Shown in pieces: positions 49,767-57,257 of a stretch of DNA of 64,000 nt (position 1 is the stretch's first letter; each line of letters begins with the position of its first letter). The notes beneath the pieces are model-generated. The model saw nothing but the letters and a program-made list of their open reading frames with translations. It was not told where the DNA came from and made no database searches. The stretch covers positions 1,116,001 through 1,180,000 of the forward strand of contig NZ_AUKG01000001.1 in assembly GCF_000424625.1 (NCBI RefSeq), read 5' to 3'. The DNA is from Conexibacter woesei Iso977N (lineage in GTDB: Bacteria; Actinomycetota; Thermoleophilia; Solirubrobacterales; Solirubrobacteraceae). The position numbers and the translations under genes were made by a program.

Positions 49767-50234
49767 CTAGCGGCCGATGCGCAGCCAGTCCCGGAACTCG
49801 GCCCAGGCGGCGCTCGTGCGCCATCCGGCCTCGGCCGTGGCGTGGCGGGTCCGGACCAGCCAGGGCGGGTCGTAGGCCCACCAGCGGGCGGCGACGATCG
49901 CCAGGGCGGCGGCGAGGAGGATCGCGCCGAGGACGGCCAGGAGGAGGACCGGGAGCTTGCTGTCGTTCGTGCTGCCGGGGCCGTCGGAGGCGGGGGTGGC
50001 GGTCGACGTGCCGGCCTGCCCGGTCTGGGGGGTGGCCGTCGTCTGGATGGTGGCCGTGGAGGGCGGGGGCGCGGCGGTCGTCGGCGGGACGACGGTGGTG
50101 GTGGCCACGCTCCCGGGGAGCGTCCCGCTGGTGCCGGGGAGGACCGAGGTGGTCTGGGCGCGCGCGAGCGGCGCGAGGGCGAGCGTGGCCAGGAGCGCGA
50201 GGAGCGCGACCGTGACGGGGCGGCAGCGGCGCAT
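49767..50234 (-). CDS. type I single-pass membrane protein with Thr/Pro stalk
   Basis: 155 residues from ATG 50234. Signal peptide (about 1-27, ending ARA), a Thr/Pro/Ser-rich external stalk (about 28-92), a transmembrane helix (about 95-118) and a short Trp-rich cytoplasmic tail (YDPPWLVRTRH, then WRTSAAWAEFRDWL). No family recognised. It lies 32 bp downstream of the giant coiled-coil gene on the same strand and may be its membrane partner. Confidence 0.7.
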   Translation of the reverse strand: MRRCRPVTVALLALLATLALAPLARAQTTSVLPGTSGTLPGSVATTTVVPPTTAAPPPSTATIQTTATPQTGQAGTSTATPASDGPGSTNDSKLPVLLLAVLGAILLAAALAIVAARWWAYDPPWLVRTRHATAEAGWRTSAAWAEFRDWLRIGR

Positions 50235-50266
50235 TCGGGGCGACAGGCTAGCCAAGCGGCGTTCGG

Positions 50267-53200
50267 TCAGCGCAGCACGTCGGCCAGGCCGCCGACGCCG
50301 ATCGCGACGCCGGTGGCGATCGCGGCGAACAGGAGGGCGAGCATGACCAGCCGCTCGCGGCGGGCGGAGGCGGCGAAGAGGGGGTGGTCGGGGTCGAGGT
50401 CGTCGTCTTCGTCGGCGTAGTCGTCGTGGGCGTCGTCGTGCGTCGGGGCGGGCGGTGCGCCGGTGCGCGTCCTGGCCCGGAGGTGCTCGAGCTCCTCCTG
50501 CAGCTCGACGACGCGCCGCTCGGCGTCGAGGCCGGCGGCGTTGGCGGCGGCCAGGGAGCGCTGGAGGTCCTGATCGTTCTGGGATGCCTCGAGGTCGGCC
50601 AGCTGCGCGCGGAGCGCCGCGAGCTGCTCGTCGGCATCGCGGTCGGCGGCTTGGAGGGCGGTGACCTGCTGTTGGGCGGCGGCGAGGGCGGCCTGGAGGT
50701 CGGCGACGCGCTCGTCGTCATCGCGGCGCGCGGAGTCGCGCTCGTCGGCGAGCGTGGCTTCGAGTGCGGTGACCTGCTGTTCGGCGGCGGTGAGCGCGGC
50801 CTGGAGGGCCGAGACCCGTTCGTCGGCGTCGTGGCGGGCGGCGTTGCGCTCGTTCGCGAGTGTCGTTTCGAGTGCGGTGACTTGCCGTTCGGCGGCGGTG
50901 AGCGCTGTTTGGAGGGTCGAGACCCTCGCGTCGGCGTCGAGACGGGCGGCATCGCGCTCTTCGGCGAGCGTCGACTCAAGTGCGGTGACTTGCCGCTCGG
51001 CGGCGGTGAGCGCGGTCTGGAGGGCCGAGACCCTCTCGCCGGCGTCGAGACGGGCGGCGTCGCGCTCTTCGGCGAGCGTCGACTCAAGTGCGGTGACTTG
51101 CCGCTCGGCGGCGGTGAGCGCGGCTTGGAGGGCCGAGACCCTCTCGCTGGCGTCGAGACGGGCGGCGTCGCGCTCTTCGGCGAGCGTGACTTCGACTGCG
51201 GTGACTTGCTGCTCTGCGGCGGTGAGCGCGGTCTGGAGGGTCGAGACCCTCTCGCCGGCGTCGAGGCGCGCGGCGTCGCGCTCTTCAGCGAGGGCGGAGA
51301 CCTTCTCCTCGGCGGCGTCGCGCTCTTCGGCGAGGGTGGTGACTTGCTGCTCTGCGGCGGCGAAGGCGGTCTGGAGAGTCGAGACCCTCTCGTCGGCGTC
51401 GAGACGGGCTTCGGCGAGGGCGGCTTGGAGTGCGGTGACTTGCTGCTCTGCGGTGGCGAGGGCGGTTTGGAGGGTCGTGACCCTCGCGTCGGTGTCGAGG
51501 CGCGCTGTGTCGCGCTCGTCGGCGAGGATGGCGACTTGCTGTTCGGCAGCACTGAGCGCGGCTTGGAGTGCGGAGACCCTCGCGTCGGCGTCGAGACGGG
51601 CGGCGTCGCGTTCTTCGGCGAGGGTGGCTTCGACTGCGGTGAGCGTGGCTTGGAGGGCTGTCACGCGCTCGTCGGCGTCGGCGCGGGCGGCCTGGAGTGC
51701 CGCGACCCTCTCGCGGGCGGAGGCGCGCTCTTCGGCGAGCGTCGTTTCAAGTGCGGTGACTTGGTGCTCGGCGGCGGCTGCGCGCTCGTCGGCTTCGGCG
51801 CGGGCGGTCTCGGCGGCGAGGCGGGCAGCGTCGCGCTCTTCGGCGAGGGCGGCGAGCTCGGCGTCGGCCGCCCGGATGGCGGTGGTGTGCTTCTCGGCGT
51901 GGTCGGCGAGGGTGGTTTGAAGTGCGGTGACTTGGTGCTCGGCGTCGGTCAGCGCGGCTTGGAGTGCTGAGGTGTGCTCTCCGGCGTCGAGACGCTCCGC
52001 CTGGAGGGCGGTGAGGCGGGCTTCGGCCTCGGTCAGCTCGACGGTGAGGGCGTGGAGGCGGCCTTCGGCGAGGCGGGTGCGTTCCTCGGCGGCGTGCTGG
52101 GCCTCGGCGGTCCGGCGGTCGGCGGCCGCGAGTTGTTCATCGAGTTGGTCTTCGAGAGCCGCGATGCGGGACTCGGCCTCGGCGCGGGCGGCGGTGATGC
52201 GCTCGTCGGCGTCGAGGCGGGACTCCGTCCGGATCCGCTCGATCTCGACGCCCGCGGATTCGGCCTCCGCCGTCGCCTCCGCGCGGGCGAGGCGCGCGGT
52301 CTCCTCGGCGTCGGCGAGTCGTGCGCGGAGGGACTCGGCGTCGCGCTGGGCGCCGGCTGCGGACTCCGCGCCGGTGCGCTCGGCGTCGGCGAGCTGGGCG
52401 CGCAGCGTGTCGGCTTCGGCTGCGGCCTCGGTGAGTTGGGCGTGGAGGGAGTCGGTCTCGCCGGTGGCGTCGGCGAGGCGGGCGCGGAGGGTGTCGGTGT
52501 CGCGCTGGGCGTCGGCGAGCTGGGCACGCAGGGTGTCGGTCTCGCGCTCGGCGTCGGCGGTGGCGTCGGCGAGGCGAGCACGGAGGGACTCGGTGTCGCG
52601 CTGACCTTCGGCGGTGGCGTTGGCGAGTTGGGCGCGGAGCGACTCGGTCTCGCGCTGGGCGTCGGCGAGTTGGGCGCGGAGCGTCTCCGCCTCGCGCTGG
52701 GCCTCGGTTTCGGTGTCGGCGAGGTGGGTGCGGAGTGTGTCGGTGTCGCGCTGGGCTTCGGCGAGTTGGGCGCGGAGCGACTCGGCGTCGCGGTGGGCTT
52801 CGTCCTGGAGGCGGGTGCGGAGGGATTCGAGCGCGGTGGTGTGCTCGGCCCGGAGGGTGGTGGCTTCGTGGGTTGCGGCTTCGAGCGCGGAGGCGTGGGC
52901 GGTGCGGAGGGATTCGAGGGCGGTGTCGGCCTCGTGGGCTGCCGCTTCGAGCGCGGTGGCGTGCTCGGCGTGGAGGGCGTCCACCTCGGCGGAGTGCTGC
53001 GCGCGGAGTGCGTCGCGCTGGGCGAGCGCGTCGGTGCGGTCGGCGCGGAGGGACTCCAGCTCCGAGGTGTGCTCCGCCCGGAGCGCATCGAGCGCCGCGG
53101 CCTGGTCGGCGCGGAGCCACTCCAGCGCGGAGGTGTGCTCGGCCTGGACGGTGTCGAGCTGCTCGCGTGCGGCGGACTGCTCGGCGCGGAGCGACTCCAG

Positions 53201-55477
53201 CTCCGAGGCGTGCTCGGCGCGCAGGGACTCGAGCTCGGATTCCCTCGTCGCCCGGAGCGTCGCGGCCTCGGCTTCGAGCTCTCCGACGACGGTCTGCGCG
53301 GTCGCCTCGGCGTCTTCGAGGCGCTTGCGGAGGGTGGAGGACTCGGCGTCGCGCTGGGCGTCGGCCTCGGCGAGCTGGGCGCGGAGGGCGTCGACCTCGG
53401 TCGCGGCGGCCGCCGCGGCTTCCGTGAGGCGCGTCTCAAGCGCCTGGAGCTCGTCGCGCGCCTGCAGCTCGGTGGCGTGAAGCTCGCGGGTCAGGCGCGT
53501 GATCTCGGACGCCGACGCCGACTCGGCGGCAACGAGCGCGGACTCCGCCTCGGCGACCCGCGCCGCCGCGGCCTGCTCGACCTCGACCAGCTGCTCGCGC
53601 AGCTCCGCCGCCCGCGCCGCGCCCGCCGCCTCGACGGCCGACGTGCGCTCGCGCAGCGTCTCCGCCTCCGCGGCCGCCGCGCGCTCGGCGGCCACCAACC
53701 TGGACTCCAGCTCCGACGCGTGCGCCGCGGCCGTCGACTCCGCGTCCGCCAGCCGCTCCCGCAGCGACGCCGCGTCCGCCGCCGCCTGACCCGCGCGCTG
53801 CTCGGCGTCGGCCAGCCAGTTGCGCAGGTCGTCCGTGTCGGCCTTCAGCGCCTGCTCGGCCCCCGCCGCCGCGGCTTCCGCCGACGTGACCGCCTCGCGC
53901 AGCGACCGCGCCTCCAAGGAGGACTCCGAAAGCCGGTCCCGCAGCCGGTCCGCATCCGCCGCGCGCGCCGCGCGTTCTTCTTCAACAACCCGGATGCGCT
54001 CCTCCAGCGCGTCCGCCTCCGACGCCCGCGCCCGCGCGGCCGCCAGCTGCGCCTCGAGCCGCGCCAGCCCCGCCGTCGCCTGCTCGGCCAACCCCGCGCG
54101 CTCGGCGGCCTCGACCGCAACGACCCGGAGCGCTTCCAACTCCTCAGCGGCCGCCGCCGCGCGCGTCTCCGCGTCGCGCCGGGCGACCCCTTCGACATCC
54201 AGCCGCCGCTGCGCATCGCGCAGCTCCGACGACAGCAGCGCGGCCCGCGACGACGCCTCGTTCGCGCTCTCCCTCAGCGCCCGCTGCGCGTCGGCCTCCG
54301 CCTCACGCCGCGCGGCCCGCTCCTCGCGCACGCGCGTGGTCAGGTCGTCCGCACGCCGCGCCGCCGCCTCGGCCCGCCGCGCCAGCGCCTCGGTCTCGGC
54401 CAGCTTCTGCTCCAGCCCCCGGACACGCTGCTCGGCCTGCTCGGCGCGCCGCTGGGCCGCGCCGCCGGACAGCAGCGCGTGCTCGCGCTCGCCCTCCAGC
54501 GCCTCGAACCGCTCCCGCAGCGCCGCCAGCTCGCGCGCCCGCGTCTCGGCCACCGAGCGCGCCTCTTCGACCGCCGCGACCCGCGCCTCGGCACCCCGCG
54601 CGGCCCTCGACGCCCGGTCGGCGGCGTCGCGCAGCGCGACGATCTCCCGCTCCCGCTCCTCCAGCGCCCGCCGCGCCTCGCGCGCCACCTCGACCGCCGC
54701 GCGCGCCTGCTCGGCCGCCCGCGCGGCGCGGTCGTGGTCGCCGCGCGCGCGGTCGTCGCCCGCCGTCGCGCGCTCCGACGCCCGGACGCGCTCCTCGGTC
54801 AGCGCCTCGATCGCGCCGACCCGCCCCGCCTCCGCGCGCGCCGCCAGCTCCGCCGCTCGCGCGGCCTCGGCCGCGGCCTGCTGAGCGATCTGGTGCGCCT
54901 CGGCCGCGCGCCGGTCCGCCGCCTCGCGCGCCGCCTGCTCCTCGGCGAGCCGCTCGTGGAGCGCGGTGACGTCCGACGCGCGCGCGAGCGCGCCGACGTC
55001 CAGCACCGACGGCGGCTCCTCGCGCCCGCGCCCCCGGAACCCGCCCCGCGCGCGGCGCGGCTCCGGAGGGGCTACGGGCTCGGGCGGCGCAGGAGCGACG
55101 GCCGCGGGCGCGGGAGACGGCGCAACGGGAGCAGCAGCAGCCGCCGCACGCCGCCGCCCCGCCGGCCGCGGCAGGTCCGTGATCTGCCCCCGCCCCGTCT
55201 GCAGCGCGTACGCCACCCGCGCGGCCCCGACGACCTCCGCCTCCGCGCTGAACGCGGCCCGCCACTCGAACCCCTCGGGCCCGACCATCGGCGCCGTCTC
55301 GTCCGGCCCGGGCAGCGGCGACAGCCGGTGGATCCGGCGCCCGTCGTCCAGCAACAGCAGCGGCGCGCCGAGCCGCTCGCGGGTCGGCGCGACCCAGCGA
55401 CCAGCGATCCGCAGCAGCACCGTGCCGGGACCAGCGGGAACCTGCTCGAAGGAGTGAACCTCGAAGCGCGCGGGCAA
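50267..55477 (-). CDS. giant tail-anchored coiled-coil protein
   Basis: 1,736 residues from a TTG start at 55477 (no ATG or GTG fits). Layout: a compact beta-rich N-terminal domain (about 1-110, RIAGRWVAPTRERLG, then LDDGRRIHRLSPLPGP) of unknown family; an Ala/Pro/Arg linker (about 111-165); an almost uninterrupted coiled coil of about 1,480 residues rich in Ala, Glu, Arg and Leu; an acidic patch (DYADEDDDLDPDHP); and one C-terminal transmembrane helix preceded by ARRERL. Positive charges before the helix suggest the coil is cytoplasmic and tail-anchored. It follows tmk by 27 bp. Chromosome organisation, division or polarity scaffolding are possible, but nothing in the sequence decides. Confidence 0.8.
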   Translation of the reverse strand: MPARFEVHSFEQVPAGPGTVLLRIAGRWVAPTRERLGAPLLLLDDGRRIHRLSPLPGPDETAPMVGPEGFEWRAAFSAEAEVVGAARVAYALQTGRGQITDLPRPAGRRRAAAAAAPVAPSPAPAAVAPAPPEPVAPPEPRRARGGFRGRGREEPPSVLDVGALARASDVTALHERLAEEQAAREAADRRAAEAHQIAQQAAAEAARAAELAARAEAGRVGAIEALTEERVRASERATAGDDRARGDHDRAARAAEQARAAVEVAREARRALEEREREIVALRDAADRASRAARGAEARVAAVEEARSVAETRARELAALRERFEALEGEREHALLSGGAAQRRAEQAEQRVRGLEQKLAETEALARRAEAAARRADDLTTRVREERAARREAEADAQRALRESANEASSRAALLSSELRDAQRRLDVEGVARRDAETRAAAAAEELEALRVVAVEAAERAGLAEQATAGLARLEAQLAAARARASEADALEERIRVVEEERAARAADADRLRDRLSESSLEARSLREAVTSAEAAAAGAEQALKADTDDLRNWLADAEQRAGQAAADAASLRERLADAESTAAAHASELESRLVAAERAAAAEAETLRERTSAVEAAGAARAAELREQLVEVEQAAAARVAEAESALVAAESASASEITRLTRELHATELQARDELQALETRLTEAAAAAATEVDALRAQLAEADAQRDAESSTLRKRLEDAEATAQTVVGELEAEAATLRATRESELESLRAEHASELESLRAEQSAAREQLDTVQAEHTSALEWLRADQAAALDALRAEHTSELESLRADRTDALAQRDALRAQHSAEVDALHAEHATALEAAAHEADTALESLRTAHASALEAATHEATTLRAEHTTALESLRTRLQDEAHRDAESLRAQLAEAQRDTDTLRTHLADTETEAQREAETLRAQLADAQRETESLRAQLANATAEGQRDTESLRARLADATADAERETDTLRAQLADAQRDTDTLRARLADATGETDSLHAQLTEAAAEADTLRAQLADAERTGAESAAGAQRDAESLRARLADAEETARLARAEATAEAESAGVEIERIRTESRLDADERITAARAEAESRIAALEDQLDEQLAAADRRTAEAQHAAEERTRLAEGRLHALTVELTEAEARLTALQAERLDAGEHTSALQAALTDAEHQVTALQTTLADHAEKHTTAIRAADAELAALAEERDAARLAAETARAEADERAAAAEHQVTALETTLAEERASARERVAALQAARADADERVTALQATLTAVEATLAEERDAARLDADARVSALQAALSAAEQQVAILADERDTARLDTDARVTTLQTALATAEQQVTALQAALAEARLDADERVSTLQTAFAAAEQQVTTLAEERDAAEEKVSALAEERDAARLDAGERVSTLQTALTAAEQQVTAVEVTLAEERDAARLDASERVSALQAALTAAERQVTALESTLAEERDAARLDAGERVSALQTALTAAERQVTALESTLAEERDAARLDADARVSTLQTALTAAERQVTALETTLANERNAARHDADERVSALQAALTAAEQQVTALEATLADERDSARRDDDERVADLQAALAAAQQQVTALQAADRDADEQLAALRAQLADLEASQNDQDLQRSLAAANAAGLDAERRVVELQEELEHLRARTRTGAPPAPTHDDAHDDYADEDDDLDPDHPLFAASARRERLVMLALLFAAIATGVAIGVGGLADVLR
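50700..51650. repeat. 108-bp minisatellite inside the coiled-coil gene
   Basis: Units repeat with an exact 108-bp period (anchors at 50725, 50833, 50941, 51049, 51157, 51265), then become irregular. The units starting at 50941 and 51049 differ at only four positions, so recent unequal recombination is likely. Each encodes 36 residues of the form ERVSALQTALTAAERQV and onwards, i.e. five heptads plus one skip residue. Copy number may vary between strains. Confidence 0.85.
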
Positions 55478-55504: not shown

Positions 55505-56110
55505 CTATTGCAGGGTCTTCAGCGCCGCGAGCGCGCGCGAAACGACGGTTTCCGGCGCATCCGACCCGTCCAGGACGACGTACCGCTCCGGCGCCGCGGC
55601 GGCCAGCGCGTCGTAGGCGTCGACCACGCGCGCGAAGAACTCCGGGCCCGCGGCCTCGATGCGATCGAGAGAACCCGCCGCGGCCACCCGCGCAGCGGCA
55701 ACCTCCGGAGAGACCCGGACGTACAGCGTCAGATCGGCGCGCACGTCCCCGCACGCGAAGGCGTTGATCGCCGCGACCGCCTCGACGCCCAGCCCGCGCC
55801 CCGCGCCCTGGTAGGCCAGCGACGAGTCCACGAAGCGATCCAGGACCACCCACCGCCCGTCGCGCAACAGCGGGACGACCACCTCGGAGACCAGCTGCGC
55901 CCGCGCCGCCGCGAAGAGCAGCGCCTCGGCGCGCGCATCCACGCGCAGCGACGGATCCGCCACGAGCGCGCGCACACGCTCCGACACCGCAGCCCCGCCC
56001 GGCTCGCGCAACACCACCAACTCGGGCAACGCCATCAACAACCCGCGGGCGAGCGTGGTCTTGCCCGCACCGTCGATGCCTTCGATCGCGATCAGCCGTC
56101 CGCCCGACAC
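55505..56110 (-). CDS. tmk: thymidylate kinase
   Basis: About 201 residues from GTG 56110. P-loop GIDGAGKTT at the N-terminus, REPGG (dTMP-binding), DRFVDSSLAYQG (the DR motif) and a LID region. It phosphorylates dTMP to dTDP in DNA precursor synthesis. An ATG at 56140 is possible but would overlap the start of the divergent holB. The tmk-holB pairing is common in bacteria, normally in tandem; here they diverge. Confidence 0.92.
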   Translation of the reverse strand: MSGGRLIAIEGIDGAGKTTLARGLLMALPELVVLREPGGAAVSERVRALVADPSLRVDARAEALLFAAARAQLVSEVVVPLLRDGRWVVLDRFVDSSLAYQGAGRGLGVEAVAAINAFACGDVRADLTLYVRVSPEVAAARVAAAGSLDRIEAAGPEFFARVVDAYDALAAAAPERYVVLDGSDAPETVVSRALAALKTLQ

Positions 56111-56138
56111 GAGGGCGCCACAGTACCCTGGCGCGGGC

Positions 56139-57257
56139 ATGCTCGAGGTCGTCGCCCGCCACCCGCACGCCCACTCGATCCTCTCGGCGGCGCTCCGGCC
56201 GCAGGGCGCGCCCTCGCACGCCTACCTCTTCCACGGCCCCGCCGGCGCCGGCAAGCAGGACGCCGCGCGCGCGTTCGCCGCCGAGCTGCTCGCCGAGGGC
56301 GCGACCGACCCGGCCAACGCGCGCAGGCGCGCGCTCGACGGCGTCCACCCCGACCTCACGTGGGTCCGGCCGTCAGGCGCCGCCGAGATGCTCGTCGCCG
56401 ACATCGAGGAGCCCGTGATCGGCGCCGCCACGCGCACGCCGTTCGAGGCCAGGCGCCGCGTCTTCGTCATCGAGGGCGCCGACACGATGAACGACCAGGC
56501 CGCCAACAAGCTCCTCAAGACGCTCGAGGAGCCGCCGCCGTTCGCGCACCTGGTGCTGCTCACCAACCGCCTCGGCAACATCCTGCCGACGATCCGCTCG
56601 CGCACCCAGCTGGTCCGGTTCGAGGCCGCCACCCCGGACGAGCTGAGCAACCGCCTGCAGACCAGGCACGGCGTCCCGCCGCTGACCGCCGACGCCGCCG
56701 CGCGCCTGGCGCTGGGCGACGCCGAGCGCGCGCTCGCCCTCGCGCTCGCCGAGGGTCCGTCGCTCCGGGACACCGCAGAGCGCTACGCGCGCGCCGCGCT
56801 GCACGCCCAGCTGTCCGAGCGCCCGCACGTCAGGCTGCTCGACCTCGCCAAGGCGCGCGGGGACATCGCCGCGACCGCGGTCGCCGAGCAGATCGCCGCC
56901 AACGCCGAGCTGCTGCCCGACCGCGAGGCGCGCAGGGCCAAGAGGGAGGGCGAGACGGCCGGCAAGCGCGCGCACCGCCGCGCCCACGCGGCGACGATCG
57001 ACCACGGCCTGCAGCTGGTCGGGCTGTGGCTGCGCGACGTCGCGGTCACCAAGGACGGCGCGCCGGAGCTGATCCACCACGTCGACCGCGCCGAGCAGGT
57101 CGCCGCCGACGCGCAGGAGACGCCGGCGTCCACCAACAAGCTGCGCGACGCCGTCGGCCTGGTCGAGGAGGCGCGCACGATGCAGATCCTCAACCCGTCC
57201 GAGGAGCTGGCGCTGGAGGCGCTGGCCTCCAAGCTGGAGCGGACGCTCCGGGGCTGA
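56139..57257 (+). CDS. holB: DNA polymerase III delta-prime subunit
   Basis: 372 residues. AAA+ clamp-loader features: LFHGPAGAGKQDAARAFAAEL (Walker A in part), HPDLTWV, NKLLKTLEEPP and TIRSRTQLVRF (sensor region). The zinc-binding Cys module of many bacterial delta-prime proteins is absent. The C-terminal ~130 residues are helical and Arg-rich (the collar region). It should load the beta clamp together with tau/gamma and delta. It starts 28 bp from the tmk GTG on the other strand. Confidence 0.9.
   Translation: MLEVVARHPHAHSILSAALRPQGAPSHAYLFHGPAGAGKQDAARAFAAELLAEGATDPANARRRALDGVHPDLTWVRPSGAAEMLVADIEEPVIGAATRTPFEARRRVFVIEGADTMNDQAANKLLKTLEEPPPFAHLVLLTNRLGNILPTIRSRTQLVRFEAATPDELSNRLQTRHGVPPLTADAAARLALGDAERALALALAEGPSLRDTAERYARAALHAQLSERPHVRLLDLAKARGDIAATAVAEQIAANAELLPDREARRAKREGETAGKRAHRRAHAATIDHGLQLVGLWLRDVAVTKDGAPELIHHVDRAEQVAADAQETPASTNKLRDAVGLVEEARTMQILNPSEELALEALASKLERTLRG

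What the first reader, a model, noticed from the sequence alone, without database searches (positions are those of the whole stretch)
50267..55477. Giant tail-anchored coiled-coil protein downstream of tmk
A 1,736-residue protein has a small unknown N-terminal domain, about 1,480 residues of coiled coil, an acidic patch and a single C-terminal membrane helix. It sits between tmk and a type I membrane protein with a Thr/Pro stalk. If fully extended, the coil would be roughly 200 nm (at about 0.15 nm per residue), a large part of a cell width. Such a membrane-tethered cytoplasmic rod could organise the envelope, nucleoid or division site. I know of no described system with this layout.
Basis: partly seen in the sequence, partly recalled or inferred. 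Interest (0 to 1): 0.78.

Follow-up and report, generated by a model that had tools for sequence, protein, structure and literature searches.

The report
Giant membrane-tethered rod with envelope-linked head
A soil bacterium and its relatives make a giant rod-like protein held in the membrane by its tail, whose head belongs to an unnamed protein module that also sits on enzymes building the cell surface, so it may be a scaffold for making the cell envelope.

Summary
Window 50267-55477, minus strand, encodes 1,736 residues: a 108-residue head, a linker, 1,518 proline-free residues with coiled-coil periodicity, and one C-terminal membrane helix. The head matches no Pfam or NCBIfam family and folds confidently as a beta sandwich (pLDDT 91.6). 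It was seen only in this order in our samples: 59 of 101 genomes of the family; 6 of 396 in a phylum sample, all six in that family. Of 89 collected head proteins, 40 are tail-anchored; 12 of these are giants of 1,697-2,448 residues, and all 12 lie downstream of tmk. Eight carry the head before internal membrane helices: two sortases, three SLT/M23 wall hydrolases, a YkuD transpeptidase, an O-antigen ligase and, on weaker evidence, a Wzz-like protein. Best reading: a tail-anchored scaffold for envelope assembly. Anatomy and gene linkage are shown; the function is inferred from fusions and untested. The acidic patch and exact length are not conserved, and 4 of 16 head proteins over 1,400 residues lack the helix. 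The layout resembles eukaryotic tail-anchored golgins; homology is not claimed.

The parts
50267..55477 (-). CDS of the giant tail-anchored protein, 1,736 aa, TTG start
   Evidence: orthologues at same place
55154..55477 (-). head: N-terminal beta-sandwich domain, residues 1-108
   Evidence: AF2 pLDDT 91.6, pTM 0.84; nearly the same strand order in a 40%-identical relative, predicted from the same seven sequences; no Pfam/NCBIfam match
55010..55153 (-). Ala/Pro/Arg-rich linker, residues 109-156
   Evidence: sequence; Pro positions
50456..55009 (-). Pro-free helical coil, residues 157-1674
50649..51292 (-). six tandem copies of a 108-base (36-residue) unit within the coil, 87% matches
50384..50443 (-). 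acidic stretch, residues 1679-1698; shared with G001 and G002 only among nine giants compared
50294..50350 (-). C-terminal membrane helix, residues 1710-1728 (best 19-mer)
   Evidence: hydropathy; kept in 12 of 16 long head proteins; flanking charges
55505..56140 (-). tmk, thymidylate kinase, directly upstream
   Evidence: Pfam PF02223 E 5.4e-40
49767..50255 (-). downstream small membrane protein with Thr/Pro stalk, 162 aa, conserved C-terminal tail

Best explanation
It is the giant member of an undescribed, apparently order-restricted family of proteins that share a small cytoplasmic beta-sandwich head. Shown by sequence: head, long coil and single C-terminal membrane helix, so the protein should sit as a tail-anchored cytoplasmic rod; the gene is fixed behind tmk in many genera; the same head is fused in-frame to sortases, peptidoglycan hydrolases, an L,D-transpeptidase, an O-antigen ligase and a Wzz-like/P-loop protein. 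Inferred: the head is a docking module of the envelope-building machinery on the cytoplasmic face of the membrane (head to head, or through a common partner), and the giant is a tether that holds head-bearing or head-binding envelope components together over distances up to about 200 nm, or along the membrane. Partner, oligomeric state and phenotype are unknown.
For: Eight of 89 collected head proteins have internal membrane helices. Seven of them carry an envelope domain above Pfam's cut-off: PF04203 sortase (L111, L172), SLT + M23 (L117, L049; L054 is counted by its likeness to L049 and was not scanned), PF03734 YkuD (L191), PF04932 Wzy_C (L193). The eighth (L199) has CbiA just above cut-off (26.1 against 25.4 bits) and Wzz below it (19.6 against 25.5); I read it as a polysaccharide chain-length protein. 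That the heads are homologous rests on profiles that lacked the protein in question for L193 (1.3e-31), L191 (2.7e-16), L199 (1.6e-13), L111 (2.2e-5) and L117 (1.2e-6), on the window head alone for L049 (5.4e-17) and L054 (3.6e-13), and on a reciprocal search in which the sortase head found tmk-linked heads in four genomes at 3.9e-4 to 8.7e-4. The head of L172 is 80% identical to that of L111. A sortase fusion is in the window's own genome (L111). In 40 of 89 the head is on a tail-anchored protein. All 12 tail-anchored giants are downstream of tmk, 11 directly. In several genera a multi-membrane gene, O-antigen ligase in the one scanned, lies beside the giant on the other strand. The coil gives tethering distance.
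Against: No interaction, localisation or phenotype is known. Fusion shows association in evolution, not binding. 33 of 89 head proteins have no membrane helix after the head, including the longest coils of all (3,856 and 4,103 residues), so tethering to membrane is not universal; a few of the 33 look frameshifted (L116, L178 by eye). The giant is dispensable in evolution: 8 of 20 fetched tmk loci chosen because no head had been seen behind tmk show the ribonucleotide reductase gene, recognised by reading, within about 1 kb instead. Length varies (1,697-2,448 aa, SD 282) and the coil is weakly constrained (dN/dS 0.66). Identity to the window head is 27-41% for the three fusions aligned (L111, L117, L049). 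Membrane proteins with an extracellular domain are often envelope enzymes anyway, so the fusion pattern is suggestive, not conclusive; no base rate was computed.
Confidence: 0.45

Rival explanations
1. A polarity or division scaffold in the manner of Streptomyces Scy/FilP: long Ala-rich coiled coils that mark poles or growth sites through DivIVA; envelope effects are indirect.
For: Actinobacterial, very long, Ala-rich coil (28% Ala) with periods mostly between 3.46 and 3.64; Scy and FilP are described as Ala-rich with extended hendecad stretches (PMC9858780, passages). The genome holds one DivIVA family protein over the cut-off.
Against: The DivIVA-like motif that defines DivIVA, GpsB, FilP and Scy is absent from 41 of 41 proteins tested; the protein has no PF05103 match at E up to 1; Scy and FilP are not described as tail-anchored in the passages read.
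Confidence: 0.2
2. The head is a ligand-binding module (for a sugar, lipid-linked precursor or cytoplasmic glycan) that reports precursor supply to envelope enzymes; the giant is a sensor or sink at the membrane.
For: Beta-sandwich fold; fusions to envelope polysaccharide and wall enzymes; some weak structural neighbours are domains of glycosidases or a CBM21.
Against: No structural match is significant (Foldseek best E 3.9e-3; VIA best Z 8.1 with rmsd 2.8 over 91 residues, in the range that models without a clear match give). Conserved columns are mostly hydrophobic, Gly or Pro, with R23, R73 and E11 among the exceptions; no pocket was examined.
Confidence: 0.13
3. A fast-evolving filler: long coil grown by tandem duplication, tolerated at the membrane, with no specific partner.
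For: Six alike 36-residue repeats; coil identity 56% and dN/dS 0.66 for the genus pair in which the head is 90% identical; gene absent from many relatives.
Against: Head under purifying selection (dN/dS 0.18 against G001); linkage to tmk and C-terminal helix kept across many genera; among 40 tail-anchored head proteins none has a length between 717 and 1,697, so the giants form a class of their own.
Confidence: 0.15
4. A nucleoid tether: membrane anchor at one end, chromosome-binding head at the other.
For: Length would reach the nucleoid; weak SMC profile hits.
Against: SMC hits are to coil only and far below the cut-off (30.9 against 567 bits); the head is fused to sortase, hydrolase and polysaccharide enzymes, which has no evident reason in a DNA-binding domain. 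DNA binding was not tested.
Confidence: 0.05

Closest known systems
Tail-anchored golgins (giantin, golgin-84, CASP) of eukaryotes
   Same: Long cytoplasmic coiled coil, C-terminal membrane anchor, predicted reach of golgins 100-600 nm (PMC4707255, abstract and passages).
   Different: Bacterial; a beta-sandwich head shared with envelope enzymes; no vesicle traffic or Rab GTPases expected; sequence relation neither claimed nor tested.
Scy and FilP of Streptomyces (DivIVA-like coiled-coil proteins)
   Same: Actinobacterial, long Ala-rich coils with non-heptad periods (PMC9858780, abstract and passages).
   Different: The DivIVA-like motif is absent (0 of 41); has a membrane helix and a beta-sandwich head.
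Bacterial tail-anchored membrane proteins, and SteA/SteB of Corynebacterium
   Same: Single C-terminal helix without signal sequence (PMC3087755, start of abstract); SteA, with a cytoplasmic part anchored by a transmembrane domain, forms a complex with SteB that interacts with the wall protein RipC (PMC6705760, passages and section headings).
   Different: Not reported as giant coils in what I saw; no sequence comparison of the heads was made.
EzrA (spectrin-like regulator of cytokinesis)
   Same: Helical cytoplasmic rod of a division protein (PMC4243239, start of abstract).
   Different: Recalled: its anchor is N-terminal and it is far shorter; triple-helical repeats rather than one continuous coil (abstract).

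Membership tests
Bacterial tail-anchored membrane protein | single hydrophobic helix at the extreme C-terminus, few residues after it | tested here: met
   8 residues after the best 19-mer in the window protein; 12 of 16 head proteins over 1,400 residues
Bacterial tail-anchored membrane protein | no N-terminal signal sequence, N-terminus cytoplasmic | tested here: met
   no hydrophobic window near the N-terminus of the window protein; K+R bias on the N-side of the helix in 11 of 12, one tie; orientation itself is inferred
Bacterial tail-anchored membrane protein | post-translational, signal-sequence-independent insertion | not testable with these tools
   needs an insertion assay
DivIVA-like proteins (DivIVA, GpsB, FilP, Scy) | N-terminal motif GY[DN]xx[QE]V[DN] | tested here: not met
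   0 of 41 proteins, pattern from PMC9858780
DivIVA-like proteins (DivIVA, GpsB, FilP, Scy) | long coil with hendecad periods and Ala-rich core | tested here: inconclusive
   Ala 28%; peak periods 3.46-3.64 in most windows, two at 3.22 and 3.28; a hendecad would give 3.67, which was not the peak
SMC / MukB ATPases | split ABC ATPase head | tested here: not met
   no ATPase match in Pfam; NCBIfam SMC hits in coil only, 30.9 vs 567 bits
Tail-anchored golgins | coil plus C-terminal membrane anchor | tested here: met
   layout only
Tail-anchored golgins | tethering of membranes or cytoskeleton, binding of small GTPases | not testable with these tools
   no binding data; common descent not tested

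The most novel reading that the evidence does not exclude
Solirubrobacterales use one small cytoplasmic beta-sandwich module as a plug that gathers sortases, wall hydrolases, transpeptidases and polysaccharide polymerases onto tail-anchored coiled-coil rods: a bacterial, golgin-like tethering system that lays out envelope assembly from the cytoplasmic side, with the tmk-linked giant as its longest membrane tether.
Probability: 0.27. Interest if true: 0.82.

Novelty: new variant of a known kind. Interest (0 to 1): 0.62.

Why it matters
How bacteria outside the model lineages organise surface assembly from inside the cell is open. A single head module shared by tail-anchored rods and four or five kinds of envelope enzyme gives a concrete, testable set of partners. 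It also turns one odd giant protein into a family with a defined domain that neither Pfam nor NCBIfam, as searched here, names.

Tried and rejected
Rejected: SMC relationship (coil-only hits). Rejected: allophanate hydrolase, sliding-clamp and chlorophyll-binding hits of the head profile in the PDB (E 0.36 to 1.8), chance level. Rejected: the acidic patch as a functional landmark (3 of 9 giants). Rejected: exact rod length as a ruler (1,697-2,448 aa). Rejected: an essential role across the family, since many relatives lack the gene. Behind tmk, genomes of one genus (g8: G035, G041, G077) have a coil-like frame without head; in G041 it is cut by the contig end, in G035 the coil seems split between two frames, and in G077 the 558-residue frame ends without a hydrophobic helix; G743 of the same genus does have the head.

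Inconclusive: structural comparison. VIA rows at Z 7-8 include archaellum stator proteins FlaF/FlaG, GH2 mannosidase domains and copper chaperones; at that level many sandwiches are found. A family absent from that list is not excluded. The viral structure library was not searched. Translations around three other head genes of this genome (L073, L170, L111) showed me no common theme; no profile search was run on those neighbours.

Selection of the 89 proteins: they come from matches that I fetched, best matches and complete chromosomes first, not a random draw; further matches and the match in G006 were left out. Seven cut by contig ends and one with an N run are counted apart; L065 has a short N run and was left in. 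One named locus (L079) looks frameshifted and was left out of the folding alignment. 'TM' everywhere means a 19-residue Kyte-Doolittle mean above 1.6. Distances to tmk are from the end of the BLAST match, not from the stop codon. The class and phylum searches scored only 15 and 11 candidates per genome, so misses there are possible; one match (G009) is weak and has an internal stop.

Papers: PMC9858780 abstract and passages; PMC4707255 abstract and passages; PMC6705760 passages; PMC3087755 start of abstract, and a search of its text for four terms that found nothing; PMC4243239 start of abstract in a listing. What I say of absence in print rests.

Full report
WHAT IS THERE. The reading frame lies on the minus strand, 50267-55477, 1,736 residues, TTG start 27 bases behind tmk. 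It has a head of about 108 residues, an Ala/Pro/Arg-rich linker to residue 156, a stretch of 1,518 residues without a proline, an acidic stretch and one hydrophobic segment at 1710-1728 with 8 residues behind it. Hydrophobic periodicity exceeds the 95% point of shuffled windows in 22 of 29 windows; peak periods are mostly between 3.46 and 3.64, with two windows at 3.22 and 3.28. Several windows of the middle and late coil lie near 3.6, so parts of the rod may be nearly straight rather than tightly left-handed (inference). Pfam and NCBIfam give only weak coil hits below their cut-offs.

THE HEAD. AlphaFold2 with seven sequences gives a confident beta sandwich (pLDDT 91.6, pTM 0.84). A run on a 40%-identical relative, with the same seven sequences and so not independent, gives nearly the same order of strands and short helix (pLDDT 86.0, pTM 0.76). 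Foldseek has no match at E 0.001 or better (best 3.9e-3) and the VIA second look has a best Z of 8.1 (rmsd 2.8, 91 residues), within what models without a clear match give. The head is under purifying selection (dN/dS 0.18 against G001, 0.50 against G002 and 0.40 against G004; the coil 0.66 and the last 32 residues 0.54 against G001, a simple Nei-Gojobori count without correction for the extreme GC content).

DISTRIBUTION. With the window head alone, 35 of 151 genomes of the order match; with a profile, 32 of 299 genomes of the class, all of them in families of the order, 6 of 396 in a phylum sample, all six in the same family, and 59 of 101 in the family. The seven named relatives are five Solirubrobacteraceae, one Thermoleophilaceae and one 'Actinobacteria bacterium' metagenome assembly; so the window very probably comes from a Solirubrobacteraceae genome (inference). 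The window's own genome has four head matches: the giant, a 466-residue and a 377-residue tail-anchored protein, and a 396-residue sortase.

ARCHITECTURES. Of 89 collected proteins (selection told under Tried and rejected), 40 are tail-anchored, 8 have internal membrane helices, 33 have none after the head, 7 are cut by contig ends and 1 has an N run. The 40 fall into two length classes: 12 of 1,697-2,448 residues and 28 of 297-717. Of 16 head proteins over 1,400 residues, window included, 12 end in a membrane helix and 4 do not: G125 (3,856), G717 (4,103), G022b (1,488) and G713d (1,429). Of the 8 with internal helices, 7 are envelope enzymes: sortase twice, SLT plus M23 three times (one of them, L054, by likeness), YkuD once, Wzy_C once; the eighth, L199, has CbiA just above and Wzz below Pfam's cut-off. 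K+R counts are higher on the head side of the first helix in 7 of 8 (tie in L191) and in 11 of the 12 giants (tie in G022), which puts the head in the cytoplasm. Because profile A4 contained L111, L117 and L049, the independent evidence for these is (L111 2.2e-5, L117 1.2e-6; L049 5.4e-17); L193, L191 and L199 were not in the profile. E-values are for one genome, so the sortase heads are the weakest link; the reciprocal search from the sortase head reached tmk-linked heads at 3.9e-4 to 8.7e-4.

GENE ORDER. Among 77 head genes checked with their loci, 25 have tmk upstream on the same strand: 16 within 12-188 bases of the end of the tmk match and 9 with 1.0-1.7 kb between; the window makes 17 and 9. 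All 12 tail-anchored giants are in this set, 11 directly behind tmk. None of the 24 short tail-anchored genes in that call has tmk in its locus, although 8 of these loci hold under 1.5 kb upstream. So tmk linkage marks the orthologous giant. It is not universal: of 20 tmk loci of the family fetched because no head had been seen behind tmk, 8 show the ribonucleotide reductase gene next, within about 1 kb (G014, G053, G059, G065, G086, G104, G110, G116, recognised by reading); the others have other genes, unclear stretches, a coil without head (genus g8), or contig ends. In genera g2, g7, g16, g4 and g19 and in G004 of the window's genus, a long gene that by reading is multi-membrane lies on the other strand between the giant (or, in g19, the short head protein) and the small membrane protein or reductase; Pfam names the one scanned (L042) O-antigen ligase.

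HOW IT MOST LIKELY WORKS. Shown by sequence: a tail-anchored cytoplasmic rod whose free end carries a module used elsewhere on membrane enzymes of peptidoglycan, sortase and polysaccharide assembly. Inferred: the module docks these enzymes, directly or through a shared partner, and the rod gathers or spaces them. Confidence 0.45. Rivals are a DivIVA-type polarity scaffold (0.20), a drifting filler (0.15), a ligand sensor (0.13) and a nucleoid tether (0.05). Against the favoured reading: 33 proteins without a helix after the head, among them the longest coils (genus g17), dispensability in many relatives, weak constraint on the coil, and no interaction data.

COMPARISON. By layout the nearest known things are the tail-anchored golgins of eukaryotes (PMC4707255, passages). 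In bacteria, tail-anchored proteins are known (PMC3087755, start of abstract), and so are long Ala-rich actinobacterial coils (Scy, FilP; PMC9858780), but the DivIVA-like motif that defines the latter group is absent here (0 of 41). I therefore call it a new variant of known kinds, built on a domain family that the libraries searched here do not name.

Noticed in passing
window 49767-50255 (-): Small membrane protein family with a conserved C-terminal tail (77% and 80% identity over 35 residues to two genus relatives). In other genera it also has a small N-terminal ectodomain that the window copy lacks; by reading, the tail also occurs in genomes without a head gene behind tmk.
   Followed up: partly
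L117, L049, L054: In the SLT/M23 hydrolase fusions the hydrophobic stretch after the head ends in AxA-like residues, so the head could be an unusually long cytoplasmic extension in front of a cleavable signal peptide.
   Followed up: no
L050 and L192 (genus g17): Head proteins of 3,856 residues (behind tmk) and 4,103 residues (at a contig start), nearly all coil, without a membrane helix but with a basic C-terminal tail.
   Followed up: partly
L112, L114, L066, L183, L189, L195, L201: Head plus coil proteins ending in a similar small C-terminal domain that looked SCP2-like to me (recalled label); Pfam reported nothing for that region in the six scanned (all but L195).
   Followed up: partly
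L073:10063-11463 (+): Short tail-anchored paralogue in the window's genome with several repeats of an acidic-Thr-Arg-Val motif before the membrane helix, possibly phospho-threonine sites for FHA domains (recalled resemblance; sequence).
   Followed up: no
window 50649-51292: Six tandem 108-base units in the coil, 87% matches, with 42-, 54- and 96-base periods elsewhere in the coil: growth by tandem duplication.
   Followed up: no
L125, L126, L132 (genus g8): Behind tmk a coiled-coil-like frame without the head is present, a possible decayed or head-less version of the giant.
   Followed up: partly
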